Below are positions 1 through 34,338 of a stretch of DNA of 34,338 nucleotides, piece by piece; positions within the stretch are counted from its first letter, which is position 1; each line of letters starts with the position of its first letter. A program made the translations under genes and the position numbers. The notes beneath the pieces are model-generated. The model had not been told where the DNA came from and did not search any database. It saw only the letters and a program-made list of their open reading frames with translations. Source of the DNA: a virus; the IMG/VR virus record IMGVR_UViG_3300038558_000030, positions 1 to 34,338 of that record; one strand, given 5' to 3'.

Positions 1-55
1 GCTGAGCAGCGAGGCGATCACTCCGGCGTGGCGTGTGTACTACGAGGCGATCGCT
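1..55. repeat. Inverted copy of 34217-34271 (left arm)
   Basis: The first 55 bases are the exact reverse complement of positions 34217-34271, and similarity continues through the following 33-bp repeats. Both arms lie inside copies of the hendecad-repeat gene, which are in opposite orientation at the two ends of the window. This most likely reflects two divergent paralogues with the window ending inside them, not a phage terminal inverted repeat. Confidence 0.85.
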
Positions 56-205
56 ACGGCGCGGCGTGCGCGCAGCGAGGCGATCACTCCGGCGTGGCGC
101 GCGTACGACGAGGCGAACGCTACGGCGGAGCGTGCGTACGGGGAGGCGATCCGGGCAGCGATCCCGTGGGGGCGCGTGGCGGCGAAACTGGAGGGCGTGC
201 GATGA
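2..205 (+). CDS. Hendecad-repeat (Imm5-like) protein, 5' end missing
   Basis: This open frame runs in from the left edge with no start codon and ends at TGA 203-205. It encodes five 11-residue units of the type YDEAIATARRA (33 bp each, positions 5-169), then the tail GRVAAKLEGVR. The units are rich in Ala, Arg and Glu with a regular Tyr/Trp, which suggests a helical 11-residue coiled coil. Two complete relatives in the window show what is missing: a domain with CDEAVAW and CERGDW motifs. From memory, those motifs and the Ala-rich tail resemble a phage family often labelled putative immunity protein (Imm-5-like), and that assignment is inference. The stop overlaps the next start (ATGA), so the two genes are translationally coupled. 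Its function is unknown. Confidence 0.7.
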   Translation: MSSEAITPAWRVYYEAIATARRARSEAITPAWRAYDEANATAERAYGEAIRAAIPWGRVAAKLEGVR

Positions 206-405
206 GTGACGATGCGAACGCGGGCGGCTGGGTGTCCCCAATCTACCCCAAGGAGCGTCTGGTCATTTTCCTGTCCGACGGGCGGCACGTGGAGGTGTCG
301 GAGGAGCGCGCATGGGCCTGCATTCGCGCGTGCGTGGGGGTGTCGACCGAGGGGTTGATGGAGATCGCGCCCGGGGAGTTGGGCAAGAGAGCGGGGGTGA
401 AGTGA
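202..405 (+). CDS. Small hypothetical protein, 67 aa
   Basis: The ATG at 202 overlaps the stop of the repeat protein (ATGA), and its own TGA shares one base with the ATG of the RNA ligase, so it sits in a coupled operon. The protein begins MSDDANAGGWVSP and contains a short segment, LVIFLSDGRHVEVSEERAW, that looks like a compact beta-beta-helix unit. There is no signal peptide, membrane segment or Cys cluster. I do not recognise the family. The longer frame starting at 28 is a shadow of the repeat gene and is not used. Confidence 0.65.
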   Translation: MSDDANAGGWVSPIYPKERLVIFLSDGRHVEVSEERAWACIRACVGVSTEGLMEIAPGELGKRAGVK

Positions 406-1034
406 TGGAATTCTCCGGATTTGGGAAGATCGCCAGGCTGTCCCGGGGCTGCGTCGTGACCGAGAAGATCGACGGCACGAACGCCCAGGTGAGGGTCGTT
501 CGGTTCCCTCGCAGCAACGGGGACTCCGAGCCGACGGGCGACGGGATGGGGGTGTGCGTGTTCCGGGAAACGGACGGGGCGTGGTACGCACTCTATGCCG
601 GATCCAGGACCAGGTGGATCACCCCGGCACAGGACAACTACGGATTCGCTGCCTGGGCGTGGCTTCATCGGCGGGAGTTGGTGAACGGGCTTGGTGAGGG
701 GGAGCATTTCGGGGAATGGTGGGGGCTGGGCATTCAGCGCGGGTATGGGGTCCAGGACAAGCGGTTCAGCCTATTCAACACCGGGGTCTGGGGGGCCGGT
801 GGTGCCCGGGAGAAGGAGAGGCCCGAGTGTTGCGGCGTGGTGCCCGTGCTGTGGCAGGGGGGGGTCGACACGGGGCGCATCTCGGAGGTGCTGGCCGATC
901 TGGCGGGTGGGGGCAGCGTTGCCGCGCCCGGGTACATGCGCCCCGAGGGAGTTGTCGTCTATCACGTGGCAGGCGGGCACCTGTACAAGAAGACGATCGA
1001 GCGGGACGAGGAGCCCAAGGGGAAGCGGGGGTGA
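405..1034 (+). CDS. RNA ligase (T4 Rnl2-like nucleotidyltransferase)
   Basis: The 209-aa protein has the ordered motifs of ATP-dependent RNA ligases. Motif I is EKIDGTN with candidate nucleophile Lys21. An SRTRW segment lies near residue 67, a motif III-like EHFGEWWG at 100-107, motif IV EGVVVYH at 181-187, and motif V YKKTIE at 194-199. Members adenylylate a lysine and seal RNA 3'-OH/5'-phosphate ends; in phages they often repair tRNAs cut by host defence. The length is close to a minimal catalytic domain with no large C-terminal domain. The ATG at 405 overlaps the previous stop and is preferred to the ATG at 312, which lies inside the upstream gene. Its 3' end overlaps the GTG of the RusA gene. 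Confidence 0.88.
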   Translation: MEFSGFGKIARLSRGCVVTEKIDGTNAQVRVVRFPRSNGDSEPTGDGMGVCVFRETDGAWYALYAGSRTRWITPAQDNYGFAAWAWLHRRELVNGLGEGEHFGEWWGLGIQRGYGVQDKRFSLFNTGVWGAGGAREKERPECCGVVPVLWQGGVDTGRISEVLADLAGGGSVAAPGYMRPEGVVVYHVAGGHLYKKTIERDEEPKGKRG

Positions 1035-1393
1035 CCGGCGCGTGGAGGCTGGCGTTTTGCGTCCCCGGCAACCCGGTCCCCAAGGGCCGACCACGCTTCT
1101 TCCGTGGCCACGCGGTCACGCCCAGGGAAACCCGCGCGGCGGAGGAGGTGGTCAAGCTCTGCGCCCGCCGGGCCGGGTCCAGGCCCCGGGACGGAGAGGT
1201 TGCGCTCAGCCTGGTTTTCTATCGGAGAACGCGCCAGGCGTGCGACCTGGACAACCTGGTCAAGTTGGTAAGTGATGCGCTAAACGGCGTGGCGTTTGCT
1301 GACGATCGGCAGATCGTGCTGCTGCGCGCCGAGAAGCGGATCGACGCAGAGCACCCGAGAACGGAGGTGGAAGTGTATGGCGTCGCGGAATGA
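1031..1393 (+). CDS. rusA: RusA-family Holliday junction resolvase
   Basis: The 120-aa protein opens with VPGNPVPKGRPRF, typical of RusA. It carries the acidic signature CDLDNLVKLVSDALNG followed by ADDRQI, with Asp72, Asp74, Asp91 and Asp92 as candidate metal or catalytic residues and Lys78 conserved. RusA cuts four-way junctions, removing branches from replicating or recombining phage DNA before packaging. The GTG start at 1031 overlaps the RNA ligase stop (GTGA), and the length matches the family at about 120 aa. The 3' end overlaps the next gene by 17 bases. The motif set makes this assignment firm. Confidence 0.92.
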   Translation: MTGAWRLAFCVPGNPVPKGRPRFFRGHAVTPRETRAAEEVVKLCARRAGSRPRDGEVALSLVFYRRTRQACDLDNLVKLVSDALNGVAFADDRQIVLLRAEKRIDAEHPRTEVEVYGVAE

Positions 1394-1715
1394 CTCAATG
1401 AACACCGCCAACCCGCTGCCGGGTGCACCGGGCCGCAAAAATGACTCCGGGAAAGAGCGTTGGGATTTGCTTCCCTGGGATCAGGTCACGGATGTCGTGG
1501 GGGTGCTGACGTTCGGGGCCGGCAAGTACGCTGACGACAACTGGAAGGTCGTGCTTGAGCCGCGCAAGCGCTACTCAGCCGCAGCGCTGCGACACATCAC
1601 ATCCAGGCTCCGCGGCGAGCGCCTGGACCCGGAGACGGGCAGGCCACACCTGGCGCACGCGGTGTGCTGCCTGCTGTTCTGGATGTGGTTTGATGCCCAG
1701 GAGGGAGTGCCGTGA
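1377..1715 (+). CDS. dATP/dGTP diphosphohydrolase-domain protein (DUF5664-like)
   Basis: The 112-aa protein has a conserved core running from KNDSGKERWDLLPWD through LTFGAGKYADDNW, RYSAAALRHITSR and ETGRPHLAHAVCCLLF. I recognise this as the DUF5664 family, named after the N-terminal domain of dATP/dGTP diphosphohydrolase. Its His and Asp residues (RHITS, HLAHA) fit an all-helical metal-dependent NTP pyrophosphohydrolase. A role in trimming the dNTP pool fits the neighbouring dUTPase, but no purZ-like gene is visible to suggest base replacement. The ATG at 1377 is chosen because GGAGG lies 9 bases upstream. An in-frame ATG at 1398 is the alternative start. Confidence 0.8.
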   Translation: MASRNDSMNTANPLPGAPGRKNDSGKERWDLLPWDQVTDVVGVLTFGAGKYADDNWKVVLEPRKRYSAAALRHITSRLRGERLDPETGRPHLAHAVCCLLFWMWFDAQEGVP

Positions 1716-10861: not shown

Positions 10862-12118
10862 CTAGGTGTTCGTGAAGACGCAATAGGACCCGGATCCGAT
10901 CGACACCGCGTCGCCAGATCCGCACCCGTGGTACCCCTGAACCGAGATGGTCCCACCGGATCCGAGATACATTGATCCCGATAGCCGCCCGAAGGTGTTG
11001 CCGTAGTTCGTGCAGAGGGTCCAGACGCCCCACGCGATCGCCCCGGCGTCGGCGGTGATCATCGTGGAGGCCGGGCCCGTGACGGAACCGCTCCCGCACC
11101 CGGTGCCGGACCGGAGAACCGTGCTGATGTATCGGACCCCCGTGGGCGAGGTGGAGGCATCCGCCCTGATATCCAGCGTCGCGGTGGTGGCAGAGTCACC
11201 AGTGAACGCATACAACTGGCAGTCAAACGACACGTGCGTTCCGGAAGCGTAGGACGGGGAAGCCGCGATGGTCTCCCAATTGCCGCAGGGGGCAAGGCTC
11301 TGGTCGGCGCTCAGCCCCACAAGATACGCCTTCCTGGTCACGAGCCCGTCAACGTAGCTCTTGATCGCCACGTCCGTGGTGGCAGACGGCGTGCCAAAGT
11401 TCTGCTTGGCATTGGTGATGGTGCTGTTTGCGATCTGCGACGCCGTGATCGTGGTGTTCGCGATCTGCGACGCCGTGATCGTGGTGTTCGCGATCTGGGT
11501 GGCGGTGATGGTCGCGTTGGCGATCTTGGCCGCCGTCACGGCCTGGTCCGCAATCTGGTCGGTCGCCATCTGGGCGGCCGACAGCACGCCTCCGCTCGAC
11601 ATGGACAAGGGCAGGGTCGACGCCGGGGCAGCAGCGGGCGTGGTAATCGTGTAGCTGGCGGCCAACGCTGGAGCAGCGAGGTTGACGCCGTAGGCGTTGG
11701 CGCCGCTGGTCTGGTCGATCAGCCGAAAGCCGGCACCATTCCACCCGGAGCGCGCCGCCGCGCCGTTCACGCTCATGCGCACGTCAGACGATCCGGCCCT
11801 CCACAGCCCGGACCCCGTCTCGCTGGTGAAGGAGTGCGACGGGGCGGTTGCTGAGCCATCCGGAACCCGGATCGGGGCCAACATTCCCCCCTTACCGCTT
11901 CGGCTCAGGCTGTCCGTCATCTCGGTGGAGAGGTCCGAAAACAGCCCATTCATGGTCGAGCTGGAGATCGTCGTGCCCGAGACGAACGGATACGTCCCCG
12001 TCGTGGTCGGGGTGTACGTGCCGGACGAGTTACGCGACGCCAGGGCCCATCCGTTGACGAGCATGCCGCCCGCCGCGCCGGCCCCAACCACCAGAAGTGC
12101 CACAATCGCTCTCTTCAT
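10862..12118 (-). CDS. Fibre-like protein with N-terminal signal and decapeptide repeats, 418 aa
   Basis: The ATG at 12118 (AAGGAACGGG upstream) gives a hydrophobic leader (AIVALLVVGAGAAGGMLV, then NGWALA). Residues about 90-150 resemble a phage fibre beta domain (SETGSGLWRAGSSDVRMSVN). The middle has 10-residue repeats of the ITASQIANTT type, common in trimeric phage fibre shafts. The C-terminal ~130 residues are beta-rich with Cys (ISVQGYHGCGSGD) and probably form the tip. A Sec-type leader on a fibre-like protein is unexpected. It could be an anchored or exported adhesin or a virion protein whose hydrophobic N-terminus has another use. Confidence 0.7.
   Translation of the reverse strand: MKRAIVALLVVGAGAAGGMLVNGWALASRNSSGTYTPTTTGTYPFVSGTTISSSTMNGLFSDLSTEMTDSLSRSGKGGMLAPIRVPDGSATAPSHSFTSETGSGLWRAGSSDVRMSVNGAAARSGWNGAGFRLIDQTSGANAYGVNLAAPALAASYTITTPAAAPASTLPLSMSSGGVLSAAQMATDQIADQAVTAAKIANATITATQIANTTITASQIANTTITASQIANSTITNAKQNFGTPSATTDVAIKSYVDGLVTRKAYLVGLSADQSLAPCGNWETIAASPSYASGTHVSFDCQLYAFTGDSATTATLDIRADASTSPTGVRYISTVLRSGTGCGSGSVTGPASTMITADAGAIAWGVWTLCTNYGNTFGRLSGSMYLGSGGTISVQGYHGCGSGDAVSIGSGSYCVFTNT
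11431..11490 (-). repeat. Two perfect 30-bp tandem repeats in the fibre-like gene
   Basis: Positions 11431-11460 and 11461-11490 are identical, and diverged copies continue to about 11550. Each encodes one ten-residue step of the fibre shaft. Such in-frame repeats can expand or contract by recombination and alter shaft length. Confidence 0.9.
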
Positions 12119-31230: not shown

Positions 31231-31683
31231 CTACTCCTCTGGGGCGGGGGTGTCGTCGTCCGGCTCCGGGGACTCTGCCCCGAGGTCGACGATGCGGATC
31301 TCGATCGGACCTCCGTCCGGACCCTGATGGGCCGTGCGGTCCACAAACATGGCCAGGTGTTTCCCCAGCAATTCCAGCGCCCGATTCGCGCCGGCCGCGT
31401 CAAAATTCTCGGCGGACGTGCACCGGACCGCGACCCGCCGGAGCCTGCGCAACACCCAGGTCGCATCCACGAGCGCGGTAGCCTCGACCCTCTTCATCTG
31501 CCCGCGTAGGTACTCCTGCACCCGAGGGTGACGGAGCAGGCGCGATGCCGACACCTCGGCCCCGGCTGGCGAGTAGCCCGCCGCGATTGCCGCCCGCTTG
31601 CCGTTGGGCTCCTTCATGTATTCATTGACGAATTTTCGCTGCCTCTCGGTCAGGCCGTCCAGGTGTCTCCCGATCCCGTCCAT
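31231..31683 (-). CDS. terS: Terminase small subunit
   Basis: The 150-aa protein has the Terminase_2-type DNA-binding N-terminus: LTERQRKFVNEYMKEPNGKR, AAIAAGYSPAGAEVSASRLL, RHPRVQEYL. The HTH lies at about residues 28-55. An oligomerisation helix follows, then an acidic tail (SPEPDDDTPAPEE). It recognises phage DNA and delivers it to the large subunit. Its ATG lies within the end of a 31-aa frame. Unlike in most phages, it is separated from terL by about 2.5 kb of tiny genes. Confidence 0.9.
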   Translation of the reverse strand: MDGIGRHLDGLTERQRKFVNEYMKEPNGKRAAIAAGYSPAGAEVSASRLLRHPRVQEYLRGQMKRVEATALVDATWVLRRLRRVAVRCTSAENFDAAGANRALELLGKHLAMFVDRTAHQGPDGGPIEIRIVDLGAESPEPDDDTPAPEE

Positions 31684-31745
31684 GGGTCATAGTATCCGCC
31701 GGGAGCCGCGCCCCGTTGTCGCCCTGGCCCGTCGCCGTCGCTCAT
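31650..31745 (-). CDS. Possible 31-aa peptide between repeat gene and terS
   Basis: The ATG at 31745 overlaps the repeat-gene stop (ATGA) with GAGGAG upstream, and the frame ends inside the terS coding region. The peptide (MSDGDGPGRQRGAAPGGYYD and a short Trp-containing tail) is Gly-rich and probably unstructured. The good ribosome site supports translation, perhaps to couple terS to the upstream gene. Confidence 0.4.
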   Translation of the reverse strand: MSDGDGPGRQRGAAPGGYYDPWTGSGDTWTA

Positions 31746-31990
31746 CGCTCCTCCAGCTTCGCCGCCACGCGCTCCCACGGCACCGCTGCCCGGATCGCCT
31801 CCTGGTACGCACGCCGCGCCGCAGCGGTCGCCTCGTAGCACACACGCCACGCCGGAGTGATCGCCTCGCTGCTCAGCCCGAGCCGGTCGATCAGCCAGCC
31901 CAGCCAGTCACCGCGTTCGCACGCACGGTACGCAGCCTCGGGGTTCCCGTACGCCCGCGACCACGCGACCGCCTCGTCGCACGCACCCAT
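31742..31990 (-). CDS. Hendecad-repeat (Imm5-like) protein, three-repeat copy
   Basis: From ATG 31990 the product is 82 aa. The N-terminal part (MGACDEAVAWSRAYGNPEAA, RACERGDWLGWL) has the C..W and RGDWLxWL pattern of a phage family often named putative immunity protein. Three 11-residue units follow at 31775-31873 (SSEAITPAWRV, CYEATAAARRA, YQEAIRAAVPW), then ERVAAKLEER. A strong ribosome site (CCAGGAGACGCACC) precedes another ATG at 32036 whose frame (MPGSPTQVESLTA) would join this gene if eight bases (GAACTGCT, present in the copy at 33312) were restored. The annotated start may thus be a fallback after a small deletion. Confidence 0.65.
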   Translation of the reverse strand: MGACDEAVAWSRAYGNPEAAYRACERGDWLGWLIDRLGLSSEAITPAWRVCYEATAAARRAYQEAIRAAVPWERVAAKLEER

Positions 31991-32060
31991 CTTCTCCAGC
32001 AGTGAGGGACTCGACCTGGGTGGGGGAGCCGGGCATGGTGCGTCTCCTGGGGTGAGGGGG

Positions 32061-32288
32061 CTACGGGTACAGGCCGCGCTCCGCGAGTCTCCGCTTCATC
32101 TCGGCCATCTCGGACGGCGCGTTGGCCTCCTGCTCGGCGACGAGGGCCGCATGGGCGGCGGCGAACTCCAGGGCGGCGGCCTGGAGGCCAAGGCTAGCGC
32201 GCCGGAGCATCGCGGCCTTGGGCTCGTTGCGGGCGGCGCAGTAGAGCAGGTGAGAGGCGCGCTGGAGGCGGTCTTCTACGGGGGTCAT
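32061..32288 (-). CDS. Helical hypothetical protein, 75 aa
   Basis: ATG 32288 is preceded by GAGGAGG about 9 bases upstream. The product is almost wholly helical (EDRLQRASHLLYCAARNEP, LRRASLGLQAAALEFAAAHA, EMAEMKRRLAERG). Between this gene and the Cys-rich gene upstream lies an 8-bp GC hairpin (32319-32344) without a T-tract. The family is not recognised. Confidence 0.6.
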   Translation of the reverse strand: MTPVEDRLQRASHLLYCAARNEPKAAMLRRASLGLQAAALEFAAAHAALVAEQEANAPSEMAEMKRRLAERGLYP

Positions 32289-32352
32289 GGTCGTTGTCCT
32301 CCTCGGTGCTGCGGGTGAGGGGCGCCCCGTGGTGGCGGCGCCCCGGGGTGGG

Positions 32353-32625
32353 CTAGCGGTACGCCTCGATCCGGTACTCGCCCTCGATGTTCGCGGCCGC
32401 CATCCCGTCGGCCGCGGCGTAGGTGTCGTAGCCGTCGGAGTCCACCTCGGCGGGGATGCTGGTGGCGACGATCCGGAACCGGTACTCGTCGGCCCTGGTC
32501 TCGCAGGTGGCGCGGTCGCAGACGACCAGACCGTTGAACGCCACGCGGCGCGACTGCTGCTGCCTGGGCATCGGGTTACCGCACACCGGGCACCGCCCGC
32601 AGTTGGTCTTGGTCGTGGTGGCCAT
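32353..32625 (-). CDS. Zinc-finger-like protein, first gene after the early promoter, 90 aa
   Basis: The protein starts MATTTKTNCGRCPVCGNPMP. Together with CDRATC about 25 residues later, the Cys pairs form a probable four-Cys zinc ribbon. The C-terminal half has short strands (YRFRIVATSIPAEVDSDG, IEGEYRIEAYR). It lies about 45 bases after the predicted start site of the minus-strand promoter and has GGAG upstream, so it is the first gene expressed from it. A regulatory role would fit both position and fold but is inference. Confidence 0.65.
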   Translation of the reverse strand: MATTTKTNCGRCPVCGNPMPRQQQSRRVAFNGLVVCDRATCETRADEYRFRIVATSIPAEVDSDGYDTYAAADGMAAANIEGEYRIEAYR

Positions 32626-32675
32626 CTCCGCTCTCCTCGCTGGCGTCCGGCTCCATGCCGTCCGTCGATGGTGAG

Positions 32676-32704
32676 AATATACGTCTACGGTAGACGTACG
32701 TCAA
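32676..32704 (-). promoter_or_regulatory. Strong sigma70-type promoter for the minus-strand genes
   Basis: On the minus strand TTGACG (32699-32704) and TATATT (32676-32681) are separated by exactly 17 bases, close to consensus. The start site would be near 32668, about 43 bases before ATG 32625. It is the best promoter seen upstream of the long minus-strand block. Both elements overlap palindromic operators. Confidence 0.8.
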
Positions 32705-32713
32705 CGGTAGACG
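32681..32713. promoter_or_regulatory. Two palindromic operators over the early promoter
   Basis: Positions 32681-32697 form a perfect 17-base palindrome (ACGTCTACGGTAGACGT, centre 32689). Positions 32699-32713 are a near copy (CGTCAACGGTAGACG, centre 32706). Centres are 17 bases apart. The first fills the spacer between -35 and -10 and the second covers the -35, a layout typical of a dimeric repressor blocking RNA polymerase. No repressor gene is found in the window. Confidence 0.75.
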
Positions 32714-32939
32714 CGCGGGCTGGTGGGGTGACCCGGGGGAGGGGATGCGAGGAACGCCCTGGGACGGCCCCTCCCGCTGCGCCAGCGCCCCGCCCTGAGG
32801 CGTGGGGGAGGGTGGCCAGCGGGATGGGCGCTCCAGTGAGTGTGCGTCCTGTGTGCCCCTCAGGCGCGGAAATGGACCCATTCGGGCACACGCGGTGGAC
32901 GCTAACCCCTCGTAACTCCAGGCGTGGCGATCCCCATCC

Positions 32940-32989
32940 CCTGAATGGCATTCAGGAGGTCACCAGTTCGATCCTGGTCGGGTCCACCA
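32940..32989 (+). other. tRNA-Ala(GGC) 3' half, probable attP core
   Basis: The 50 bases fold as the 3' half of a tRNA. The anticodon stem is CCTGA/TCAGG with loop ATGGCAT (anticodon GGC). The variable loop is AGGTC. The T stem is ACCAG/CTGGT with loop TTCGATC. The acceptor 3' strand CGGGTCC is followed by discriminator A and CCA. The 5' half (D arm and GGACCCG acceptor strand) is missing, so it is not a functional gene. A tRNA 3' half beside an integrase gene is the classic attP arrangement, which restores the host tRNA on integration. Confidence 0.85.
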
Positions 32990-32993
32990 GTAA

Positions 32994-33027
32994 ATACGGG
33001 CGCTTAGGGCAACCTAGGCGCCCGTAT
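32994..33027. terminator. Stable hairpin between attP and integrase remnant
   Basis: A 15-bp stem with one G-U pair (32994-33008 with 33013-33027) closes a four-base loop. The stem overlaps the first base of the integrase stop. T-tracts on either side are weak (CATTTC to the right, TTTACT on the minus side). It may terminate integrase transcription or stop host tRNA read-through after integration. Confidence 0.7.
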
Positions 33028-33215
33028 CATTTCGGCGGTGTGCGTCCTGTGTGCCCTATTCCCGGGGCAGACCCGGGCTCTCCGGCCCGGTCGAGGCGGG
33101 CGCGCAGGCTGTCGAGCCGGGCGTGGACGTACCTCTCGGCCATCCGGCTGGAGCTCCACCCGCCCAGGAGCTGCACCTCCGCGACGCTCGCGCCGGCCTC
33201 GGCCGCCCGGCTCGC
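33027..33215 (-). pseudogene. Tyrosine recombinase (integrase) C-terminal remnant
   Basis: The frame encodes ASRAAEAGASVAEVQLLGGW, then SSSRMAERYVHARLD. This is the end of a phage integrase catalytic domain: the region after the HxLR box, the LLG(H/G)W box with its His/Trp position, and the nucleophilic Tyr in AERYVHA. The first catalytic Arg, Lys and HxLR residues are missing, because the sequence upstream of 33215 belongs to the repeat-protein family and is in another frame. No start codon serves the remnant. Its position next to attP is as expected for an integrase. Deletion through a short shared stretch (CGTGCGAGC) or a false assembly join could explain it. Confidence 0.8.
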
Positions 33216-33312
33216 ACGCACGGTACGCAGCCTCGGGGTTCCCGTACGCCCGCGACCACGCGACCGCCTCGTCGCACGCACCCATCTTCTCCAGCAGTTC
33301 AGCAGTCGTCAT
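33211..33312 (-). pseudogene. Truncated hendecad-repeat (Imm5-like) gene, 5' end only
   Basis: The ATG at 33312 overlaps the previous stop (ATGA, GAGGAG upstream) and encodes MTTAELLEKMGACDEAVAWS through RACE. It gives the true N-terminus of the family and is nearly identical to 31916-31998 over about 80 bases. After RACE the sequence switches to integrase DNA out of frame, so the RGDW motif and all repeats are lost; the open frame continues to 33004 as meaningless Arg/Gly-rich sequence. It still has its start signals and could make a short product. Confidence 0.75.
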
Positions 33313-33524
33313 CGCTCCTCCAACTTCGCCAGGTCCACACCCACGGCCTGTAGCGCCGCCTCGTTGTGCTGCCGAACCTCCGCCAGCAGGCGCATGGTCT
33401 CGGCGTTACTCCAGTGGCACTCTCGCGCCGCCAGCACTGCGCGACGCACGCGCGCCGCCTCCCGGGTCGACTCCTCTCCGGCCTCCTCCAGCACAGCCCG
33501 CATGTCCCGATACAGGTCGCGCAT
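33309..33524 (-). CDS. Helical hypothetical protein, 71 aa
   Basis: The ATG at 33524 has GGGGTGA five bases upstream; a GTG at 33533 overlapping the previous stop is the alternative. The product is helical (MRDLYRDMRAVLEEAGEEST, EAARVRRAVLAARECHW, MRLLAEVRQHNEAAL) and ends DLAKLEER. That ending resembles the AAKLEER end of the repeat protein at 31742, so the 3' ends may have been exchanged by recombination. The longer frame from 33764 is a shadow. Confidence 0.6.
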   Translation of the reverse strand: MRDLYRDMRAVLEEAGEESTREAARVRRAVLAARECHWSNAETMRLLAEVRQHNEAALQAVGVDLAKLEER

Positions 33525-33529
33525 GGAGA

Positions 33530-33865
33530 TCACCCCAGCAGCCTGCGGGTGGTTGCCTCGACCTCGCGGACCAGCGCCTTGAGGGTGGGCATGTCCCGGA
33601 CCAGCTTCCGAGCGGCGTCGGCCTGGACGTCCCGGTCCGCGTGCTCCATCAGCACCACGTACGCGAGGTCCACCAGCACGTCCAGCGCCTCGTGGTGGTG
33701 CATCTCCCGCCCCTGCACCTCGATGAGGTCGTCCGCGACCTCGGCACACCCGCACGTTTCGCACCGCCCGCAGCAGCCGCCCGGGTCCGGCTGGCGGCCG
33801 TCATGGTCGCGCTGCACAGCCTGCATCTCCTGGTGTTGCTGGATCACAAGATCAGAGTCATTCAT
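33530..33865 (-). CDS. Cys-cluster helical protein, 111 aa
   Basis: The ATG at 33865 overlaps the preceding 37-aa gene. The protein has a Gln/His-rich start (MNDSDLVIQQHQEMQAVQRD), a compact Cys cluster (CCGRCETCGC) able to bind zinc, and a helical C-terminal half (LDVLVDLAYVVLMEHADRDV, LKALVREVEATTRRLL). The family is not recognised. Its stop is next to the start of the 71-aa gene. Confidence 0.6.
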   Translation of the reverse strand: MNDSDLVIQQHQEMQAVQRDHDGRQPDPGGCCGRCETCGCAEVADDLIEVQGREMHHHEALDVLVDLAYVVLMEHADRDVQADAARKLVRDMPTLKALVREVEATTRRLLG

Positions 33866-33971
33866 GGCCCGCCTCCTGACGCAGTCGATCCTCCGCCCGG
33901 CGCAGCGCCACAACCATCGCCACGCGGAGCATTCGCACCACCACGTCCCGCATCTCTTCGAGCGCACTCAT
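33858..33971 (-). CDS. Small helical protein, 37 aa
   Basis: The ATG at 33971 overlaps the stop of the repeat gene (ATGA). The peptide is a single amphipathic helix (MSALEEMRDVVVRMLRVAMV, then VALRRAEDRLRQEAGHE). Its stop overlaps the next start. Coupled position on both sides is the main support for it being a real gene. Confidence 0.5.
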   Translation of the reverse strand: MSALEEMRDVVVRMLRVAMVVALRRAEDRLRQEAGHE

Positions 33972-34338
33972 CGCACGCCCTCCAGTTTCGCCGCCACGCG
34001 CCCCCACGGGATCGCTGCCCGGATCGCATCCCGGTACGCACGCTCCGCCGGAGCGATCGCCTCCTGGTACGCACGCCGCGCCGTAGCGATCGCCTCGTCG
34101 TACGCGCGCCGTGCCGGAGCGATCGCCTCGCTGCGCGCACGCCGCGCCGTAGCGATCGCCTCGTCGTACGCGCGCCGTGCCGGAGCGGTCGCCTCGTCGT
34201 ACGCGCGCCACGCCGGAGCGATCGCCTCGTAGTACACACGCCACGCCGGAGTGATCGCCTCGCTGCTCAGCCCGAGCCGACAAACCAGCCAGCCCAGCCA
34301 GTCACCGCGTTCGCACGCACGGTACGCAGCCTCGGGGC
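33968..34338 (-). CDS. Hendecad-repeat (Imm5-like) protein, eight-repeat copy, 5' end beyond window
   Basis: The frame enters from the right edge at PEAAYRACERGDWLGWLVCR. It continues through eight 11-residue units (34004-34267; types YDEATAPARRA, YDEAIATARRA, YQEAIAPAERA) and ends GRVAAKLEGVR. Only about 25 N-terminal residues should be missing, by comparison with the copy at 33312. The regular Tyr-Asp-Glu-Ala spacing suggests a helical rod. N-terminal CERGDW resembles a phage family labelled putative immunity protein; a protective role is not shown. It is the longest copy in the window and is divergent from the left-edge copy. Confidence 0.75.
   Translation of the reverse strand, partial: PEAAYRACERGDWLGWLVCRLGLSSEAITPAWRVYYEAIAPAWRAYDEATAPARRAYDEAIATARRARSEAIAPARRAYDEAIATARRAYQEAIAPAERAYRDAIRAAIPWGRVAAKLEGVR
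34004..34267 (-). repeat. Array of eight 33-bp repeats
   Basis: Eight in-frame 33-bp units, each one hendecad, make up most of the right-edge gene. Related arrays with five units (5-169) and three units (31775-31873) occur elsewhere in the window. Units are shared between copies in different order, as expected from unequal recombination. Confidence 0.9.
34217..34271. repeat. Inverted copy of 1-55 (right arm)
   Basis: Exact reverse complement of positions 1-55, inside the right-edge repeat gene. See the left arm for interpretation. Confidence 0.85.

What the first reader, a model, noticed from the sequence alone, without database searches (positions are those of the whole stretch)
33968..34338. 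Multicopy hendecad-repeat gene family with variable repeat number at window ends and control region
Four copies of one gene family are seen: 2-205 (5 units), 33968-34338 (8 units), 31742-31990 (3 units) and a truncated copy at 33211-33312. Each unit is 33 bp or 11 residues, so length can change without loss of frame. Several paralogues with different rod lengths in a ~34-kb phage suggest active recombination and selection for variation. The CERGDW domain recalls a family labelled putative immunity protein, so a role in exclusion or defence evasion is possible but unproven.
Basis: partly seen in the sequence, partly recalled or inferred. Interest (0 to 1): 0.8.

Follow-up and report, generated by a model that had tools for sequence, protein, structure and literature searches.

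The report
Variable-length helical-repeat phage gene family
This phage carries several copies of a small gene whose protein has fixed ends and a helical middle built from 11-residue blocks; whole blocks are gained and lost, a distant phage has ten such copies, and what the proteins do is unknown.

Summary
The window is a whole linear IMG/VR record (67% GC) of an Mx9-like temperate podovirus, probably incomplete. It has four copies of one family: A 31742-31990 (-), B 33212-33312 (-, N-terminal remnant), C 33968-34338 (-) and D 2-205 (+). C and D are cut by the contig ends. No Pfam, PHROG or NCBIfam model describes it. The N-cap (GAC..EA..W...C.RGDWL.W) belongs to a widespread, uncharacterised phage protein group, usually single-copy with an Ala-rich helix. 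A distant relative (IMGVR 3300046509_000002) has ten N-caps, with 6-12 units per gene; two of its copies differ by exactly two units. Caps are conserved (pN/pS 0.43); units are not (1.7-3.3 in five unit sets), mainly at non-core positions. AlphaFold2 predicts a helical cap plus two long helices, probably a hairpin. The 'immunity protein' reading is not supported: PF21805 does not match the window. Most likely: early accessory proteins of adjustable arm length that bind host factors (inferred). Main rival: repeat turnover under relaxed constraint.

The parts
2..205 (+). Copy D: 4 hendecad units (17-148) and the C-cap IRAAIPWGRVAAKLEGVR; N-cap lost beyond the left contig end; stop overlaps the next start (ATGA)
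   Evidence: translation; units; inverted repeat to copy C
31742..31990 (-). Copy A: N-cap MGACDEAVAW...CERGDWLGWL, 2 hendecad units (31796-31861), C-cap IRAAVPWERVAAKLEER; just upstream of the small terminase gene (31231-31683)
33212..33312 (-). Copy B: N-cap remnant MTTAELLEKMGACDEAVAWSRAYGNPEAAYRACE, cut at 33211 and fused to an integrase fragment
   Evidence: 87 nt identical to 31917-32003
33968..34338 (-). Copy C: N-cap part PEAAYRACERGDWLGWL, 7 hendecad units (34025-34255), C-cap IRAAIPWGRVAAKLEGVR; first part of the N-cap lost beyond the right contig end
31917..32003 (-). 87-bp exact direct repeat, copy A side
33212..33298 (-). 87-bp exact direct repeat, copy B side
33027..33211 (-). 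C-terminal piece of a tyrosine integrase fused to copy B; N-terminal part absent
   Evidence: PF00589 E 3.4e-5 at profile positions 126-168 of 172; phrog_1
32676..32713 (-). Sigma-70-like promoter match (32704-32676) within tandem 17-bp repeats (32680-32713); candidate control region upstream of copy A
   Evidence: consensus match only

Best explanation
This is an expandable phage gene family encoding small, soluble, all-helical proteins with three parts: a conserved N-cap (GAC..EA..W...C.RGDWL.W), a run of 11-residue units, and a short C-cap (IRAxIPW..V..L). Each unit has Ala in 3-4-4 spacing plus one Tyr, the hendecad coiled-coil pattern. Shown: the caps are conserved; arm length changes in whole 33-bp units, so the frame is kept; units are shared between copies. 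Predicted: two long helices, most likely packed as a hairpin beside the caps. Inferred: early or early/late-boundary cytoplasmic proteins in which the cap docks to a partner and the arm presents variable residues to host proteins, so unit gain, loss and exchange among paralogues changes what is bound. Host takeover or counter-defence is my most likely function, but nothing here tests it.
For: Repeat and copies. Homologues: IMGVR 3300046509_000002 has ten N-caps; its units number 6-12 and parsed bodies have the same remainder modulo 11 except one; the copies at 45036 and 280 share unit order but differ by two DNA-identical units; neighbouring copies overlap by 13 nt. Two other phages have two copies. 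Caps pN/pS 0.43; units 1.74 there, 1.8 in the window, 2.69, 3.34 and 2.0 in others; 2.76 at non-core against 1.05 at core positions. Model pLDDT 86, pTM 0.73, helices 60-91 and 98-139. Location: between packaging and early replication or nucleotide genes in the window and relatives.
Against: No functional data. Neutral simulation gives a median pN/pS of 0.9-1.6 with a 95th percentile of 1.4-2.4, so the unit values are only borderline, and units are not independent. The hairpin is inferred from secondary structure, pTM and structural alignment; the window's own copy A was modelled poorly (pLDDT 69). No informative fold match. Copies C and D lack part or all of their N-caps because the contig ends inside them.
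Confidence: 0.4

Rival explanations
1. Selfish or neutral repeat turnover: a dispensable accessory protein under weak constraint, whose 33-bp units and gene copies multiply by slippage and recombination without selection for diversity.
For: Neutral simulations reach pN/pS of 1.4-2.4 at the 95th percentile; copy B is broken; copy number varies widely between phages.
Against: Caps under purifying selection (0.43) in the same genes; core Ala, Glu and Tyr kept while other positions vary; nearly all copies keep frame.
Confidence: 0.3
2. A packaging- or virion-related function: genes beside the terminase act as spacer or scaffold proteins, or their repeated DNA serves as a packaging or recombination site.
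For: Copy A lies next to the small terminase gene, and copies lie near terminase in several relatives.
Against: In G004 the genes precede the early replication genes on the opposite strand to terminase; caps evolve as protein; PHROG tape-measure matches fall on the repeats only; terminase lies beside the early region in many phages anyway.
Confidence: 0.12
3. Toxin-immunity (Imm5-like) or superinfection-exclusion proteins.
For: One Ala-rich relative with the same N-cap matches PF21805 Imm5_like at E 0.0014, below cut-off.
Against: The window proteins have no match; they lack the middle domain, where most of that match lies; no toxin partner gene was identified; no obvious signal peptide or membrane helix for an exclusion protein (by eye).
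Confidence: 0.1
4. Assembly artefact: extra copies created by misassembly at the repeats.
For: Both contig ends and the ends of three relatives' contigs fall inside these genes; the 87-bp identity and the integrase fusion could be chimeric.
Against: A, C and D have different downstream genes; a relative carries nine intact, non-identical copies in one contig, and a second contig matches its first copy's region at 100% over 5.4 kb.
Confidence: 0.08

Closest known systems
phrog_18326-like phage proteins (function unknown), e.g. vir526_00023 of Caudoviricetes sp. vir526; at least 176 viral loci by N-cap
   Same: N-cap GACxEA..W...AW..C.RGDWMLW, a helical repetitive middle and a C-cap with IPW..V; 33% identity over 51 residues between the G004 protein and vir526_00023
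   Different: They have an extra ~55-residue domain after the N-cap and a low-complexity Ala-rich helix, and are mostly single-copy. The window and G004 type go straight from N-cap to hendecads and are multicopy
Pfam PF21805 Imm5_like
   Same: One relative with the same N-cap touches it weakly
   Different: The match covers mainly the middle domain, which the window proteins lack; no match for them
Hendecad (right-handed) coiled coils, e.g. ATP synthase subunit b stalk
   Same: 11-residue period with small residues in 3-4-4 spacing; weak sequence match, E 0.025
   Different: Not homologous on this evidence; here predicted as a hairpin with caps, in multicopy phage genes
Periscope proteins (PMC9704523, found; not read in full)
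   Same: As I recall that concept, length variation through near-identical DNA repeats
   Different: Those are bacterial surface proteins; these have no obvious export signal and lie in phage early or boundary regions

Membership tests
PF21805 Imm5_like / 'putative immunity protein' | Significant match to the family profile | tested here: not met
   No match up to E 1 for A, C and D and none up to E 10 for the A/B composite; only an Ala-rich relative scores, at 18.9 bits against a 25-bit cut-off
PF21805 Imm5_like / 'putative immunity protein' | Neutralises a cognate toxin | not testable with these tools
   needs a bench assay
N-cap group (phrog_18326-like) | N-cap motif GACxEA..W...C.RGDW[LM]xW | tested here: met
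   Profile from four sequences finds 128 ORFs in the fetched loci and 176 viral loci; window copy A to G004 copy E 1e-13
N-cap group (phrog_18326-like) | PHROG profile match over the full protein | tested here: not met
   no phrog_18326 match for the window copies or the window N-cap
Hendecad coiled coil | 11-residue period with small residues spaced 3-4-4 | tested here: met
   Ala at unit positions 4, 7 and 11 and Tyr at 8 in the window; period 33 bp
Hendecad coiled coil | Right-handed supercoil or oligomer in three dimensions | not testable with these tools
   only a monomer prediction was available
Diversity by in-frame repeat-unit gain and loss | Copies differ by whole units that are identical in DNA | tested here: met
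   G004 copies at 45036 and 280; window C and D share units at different positions

The most novel reading that the evidence does not exclude
A phage-borne modular recognition system: paralogues with fixed caps and an Ala-packed hendecad arm whose non-core residues are diversified by unit shuffling and selection, giving the phage a pool of binders against changing host targets, comparable in logic to other modular repeat binders but built from 11-residue units.
Probability: 0.18. Interest if true: 0.8.

Novelty: new variant of a known kind. Interest (0 to 1): 0.52.

Why it matters
A family that no Pfam, PHROG or NCBIfam model describes, that reaches ten copies in one phage, keeps its ends fixed and changes its middle in whole units, is a clear case of repeat-driven diversification in phage genomes. 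If the arms bind host proteins it would be a new format of phage counter-host protein. It also warns that contigs tend to end inside these genes, so copy numbers in public phage catalogues may be underestimates.

Tried and rejected
tblastn of copy A against 50,697 phages and 72,556 plasmids: no match, so none in Mx9. Scans of viral and genome contigs with copy A or C alone gave nothing or few. The tape-measure PHROG hits fall on the repeats only and were rejected as compositional. PDB sequence and fold searches returned only generic helical matches (F-BAR, c-ring hairpins, subunit b), and the viral fold library nothing with E below 0.001. Paper searches found no description of the family. L122/L123, picked up with the L013 protein, are not hendecad arrays. 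The genome scan with A2 gave only three distant bacterial loci in MAGs of Planctomycetota and Verrucomicrobia, so the host was not settled. A phylum-wide search could not be centred on a locus.

Full report
What the window is. It is a complete IMG/VR record of 34338 bp, classed linear, 67% GC. It encodes terminase, portal, major head protein and tail proteins, and the closest large terminase is that of Myxococcus phage Mx9 at 50% identity. Mx9 is temperate, short-tailed and 53.5 kb long. No replication helicase, repressor or complete integrase was identified in the window, and both contig ends fall inside copies of the repeat family, so the record is probably incomplete.

The observation. Copies A (31742-31990, -), B (33212-33312, -), C (33968-34338, -) and D (2-205, +) are all present. 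The unit is 33 bp without indels. Identity at lag 33 in C is 0.64, against at most 0.41 in 2000 codon shuffles and at most 0.42 elsewhere in the window. Counted from the C-cap there are 2, 7 and 4 units in A, C and D. D's first two units are DNA-identical to C's first and fourth, which is what deletion or exchange of whole units would leave.

Are they real loci? A, C and D run into different downstream genes, each with an ATGA stop-start overlap, and A and B have different upstream sequence. So at least four loci exist unless the contig is chimeric inside unique sequence. A and B share 87 identical bases that flank a 1208-bp segment carrying an integrase C-terminal piece and a tRNA-3'-end-like sequence; without that segment and one repeat copy, an intact gene would read through. 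This may be a real recombination junction or a chimera; I cannot decide which.

The family. No Pfam, PHROG or NCBIfam model matches apart from low-complexity hits on the repeats. A profile of the N-cap finds 176 viral loci. Most are single-copy: about 40 of 46 matching records in a sample of 50. These carry N-cap, a middle domain, an Ala-rich helix and a C-terminal motif. The window type lacks the middle domain. The nearest like type is IMGVR 3300046509_000002 (G004), with exactly ten N-caps. They lie on one strand in two runs at the two ends of the contig, some separated by other ORFs; many neighbouring copies overlap by 13 nt, and the run at the contig start leads into an HTH gene, a primase-like gene and a DNA ligase (gene names by reading the sequence). 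A second contig, 3300048802_000001, matches G004 at 100% over 5.4 kb and then ends inside the first copy. A minimal form (N-cap, about one unit, C-cap) with a divergent neighbouring copy occurs in 3300025446_000170. Similar hendecads are joined to other N-terminal regions in 3300025645_000179, 3300016484_000462 and 3300009285_002343.

How it changes. In G004 the parsed unit numbers range from 6 to 12, and body lengths leave the same remainder modulo 11 in all but one. Copies at 45036 and 280 share the same order of units, but the second has two extra units identical in DNA. Synonymous divergence is alike in caps (0.111) and units (0.130), yet non-synonymous divergence is 0.048 in caps and 0.227 in units. 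Ratios for units are 1.74 (G004), 1.8 (window), 2.69, 3.34 and 2.0 (others); in G004, 2.76 at non-core against 1.05 at core positions. Core and non-core were assigned from conservation, so that split is partly circular. Simulated neutral evolution gives medians of 0.9-1.6 and 95th percentiles of 1.4-2.4. So the units are clearly less constrained than the caps; positive selection is suggested but not proved.

Structure. AlphaFold2 on a G004 copy gives pLDDT 86 and pTM 0.73, with four N-cap helices, two long helices (60-91 and 98-139) and a short C-terminal helix. I infer an antiparallel hairpin; alignment to hairpin chains such as an ATP synthase c-subunit (rmsd 2.0 over 69 residues) fits, but says nothing about function. 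The window's own copy A is predicted helical with low confidence. Unit Ala positions 4, 7 and 11 with Tyr 8 give the 3-4-4 spacing of hendecad coiled coils.

Function. I could not test it. Location near early genes and terminase, no obvious export signal, conserved caps and variable arms make a host-directed binder the most likely reading; neutral repeat turnover is the main rival.

Limits. No read data, so copy and unit numbers rest on the assembly. The pN/pS values come from pairwise counts of non-independent units. Gene functions in relatives were read from sequence, not searched. The host is inferred only from the Mx9 relationship.

Noticed in passing
window 32004-33211: 1208-bp segment between two 87-bp identical repeats, carrying an integrase C-terminal fragment, a tRNA-3'-end-like sequence (about 32950-32988) followed by an inverted repeat, and two small ORFs; possibly a recombination or attachment-site scar.
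   Followed up: partly
window 32676-32713: Tandem 17-bp repeats (TACGTCAACGGTAGACG) overlapping a sigma-70-like promoter match; looks like an operator region.
   Followed up: no
window 33309-33530: The gene just upstream of copy B ends in LAKLEER and has a 3' end closely similar to copy A's, as if it had exchanged a C-cap with the family.
   Followed up: no
window 400-1715: RNA ligase (phrog_548), RusA-like resolvase (phrog_140) and dATP/dGTP pyrophosphohydrolase (phrog_801) shortly after copy D.
   Followed up: partly
window 11415-11534: A second in-frame repeat, 30 bp (10 residues, ANTTITASQI type), in a gene of the virion module.
   Followed up: no
L045 and L047 (IMGVR 3300022723_000126): This 41.6-kb contig carries identically scoring N-cap gene pairs in inverted orientation near both ends, like a palindromic assembly or inverted terminal repeats.
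   Followed up: no
L016:1775-2350: Beside the G004 genes, a gene with many AEPKK repeats (PKKAEPKKAEPKKAE), another repeat protein in the same early region.
   Followed up: no
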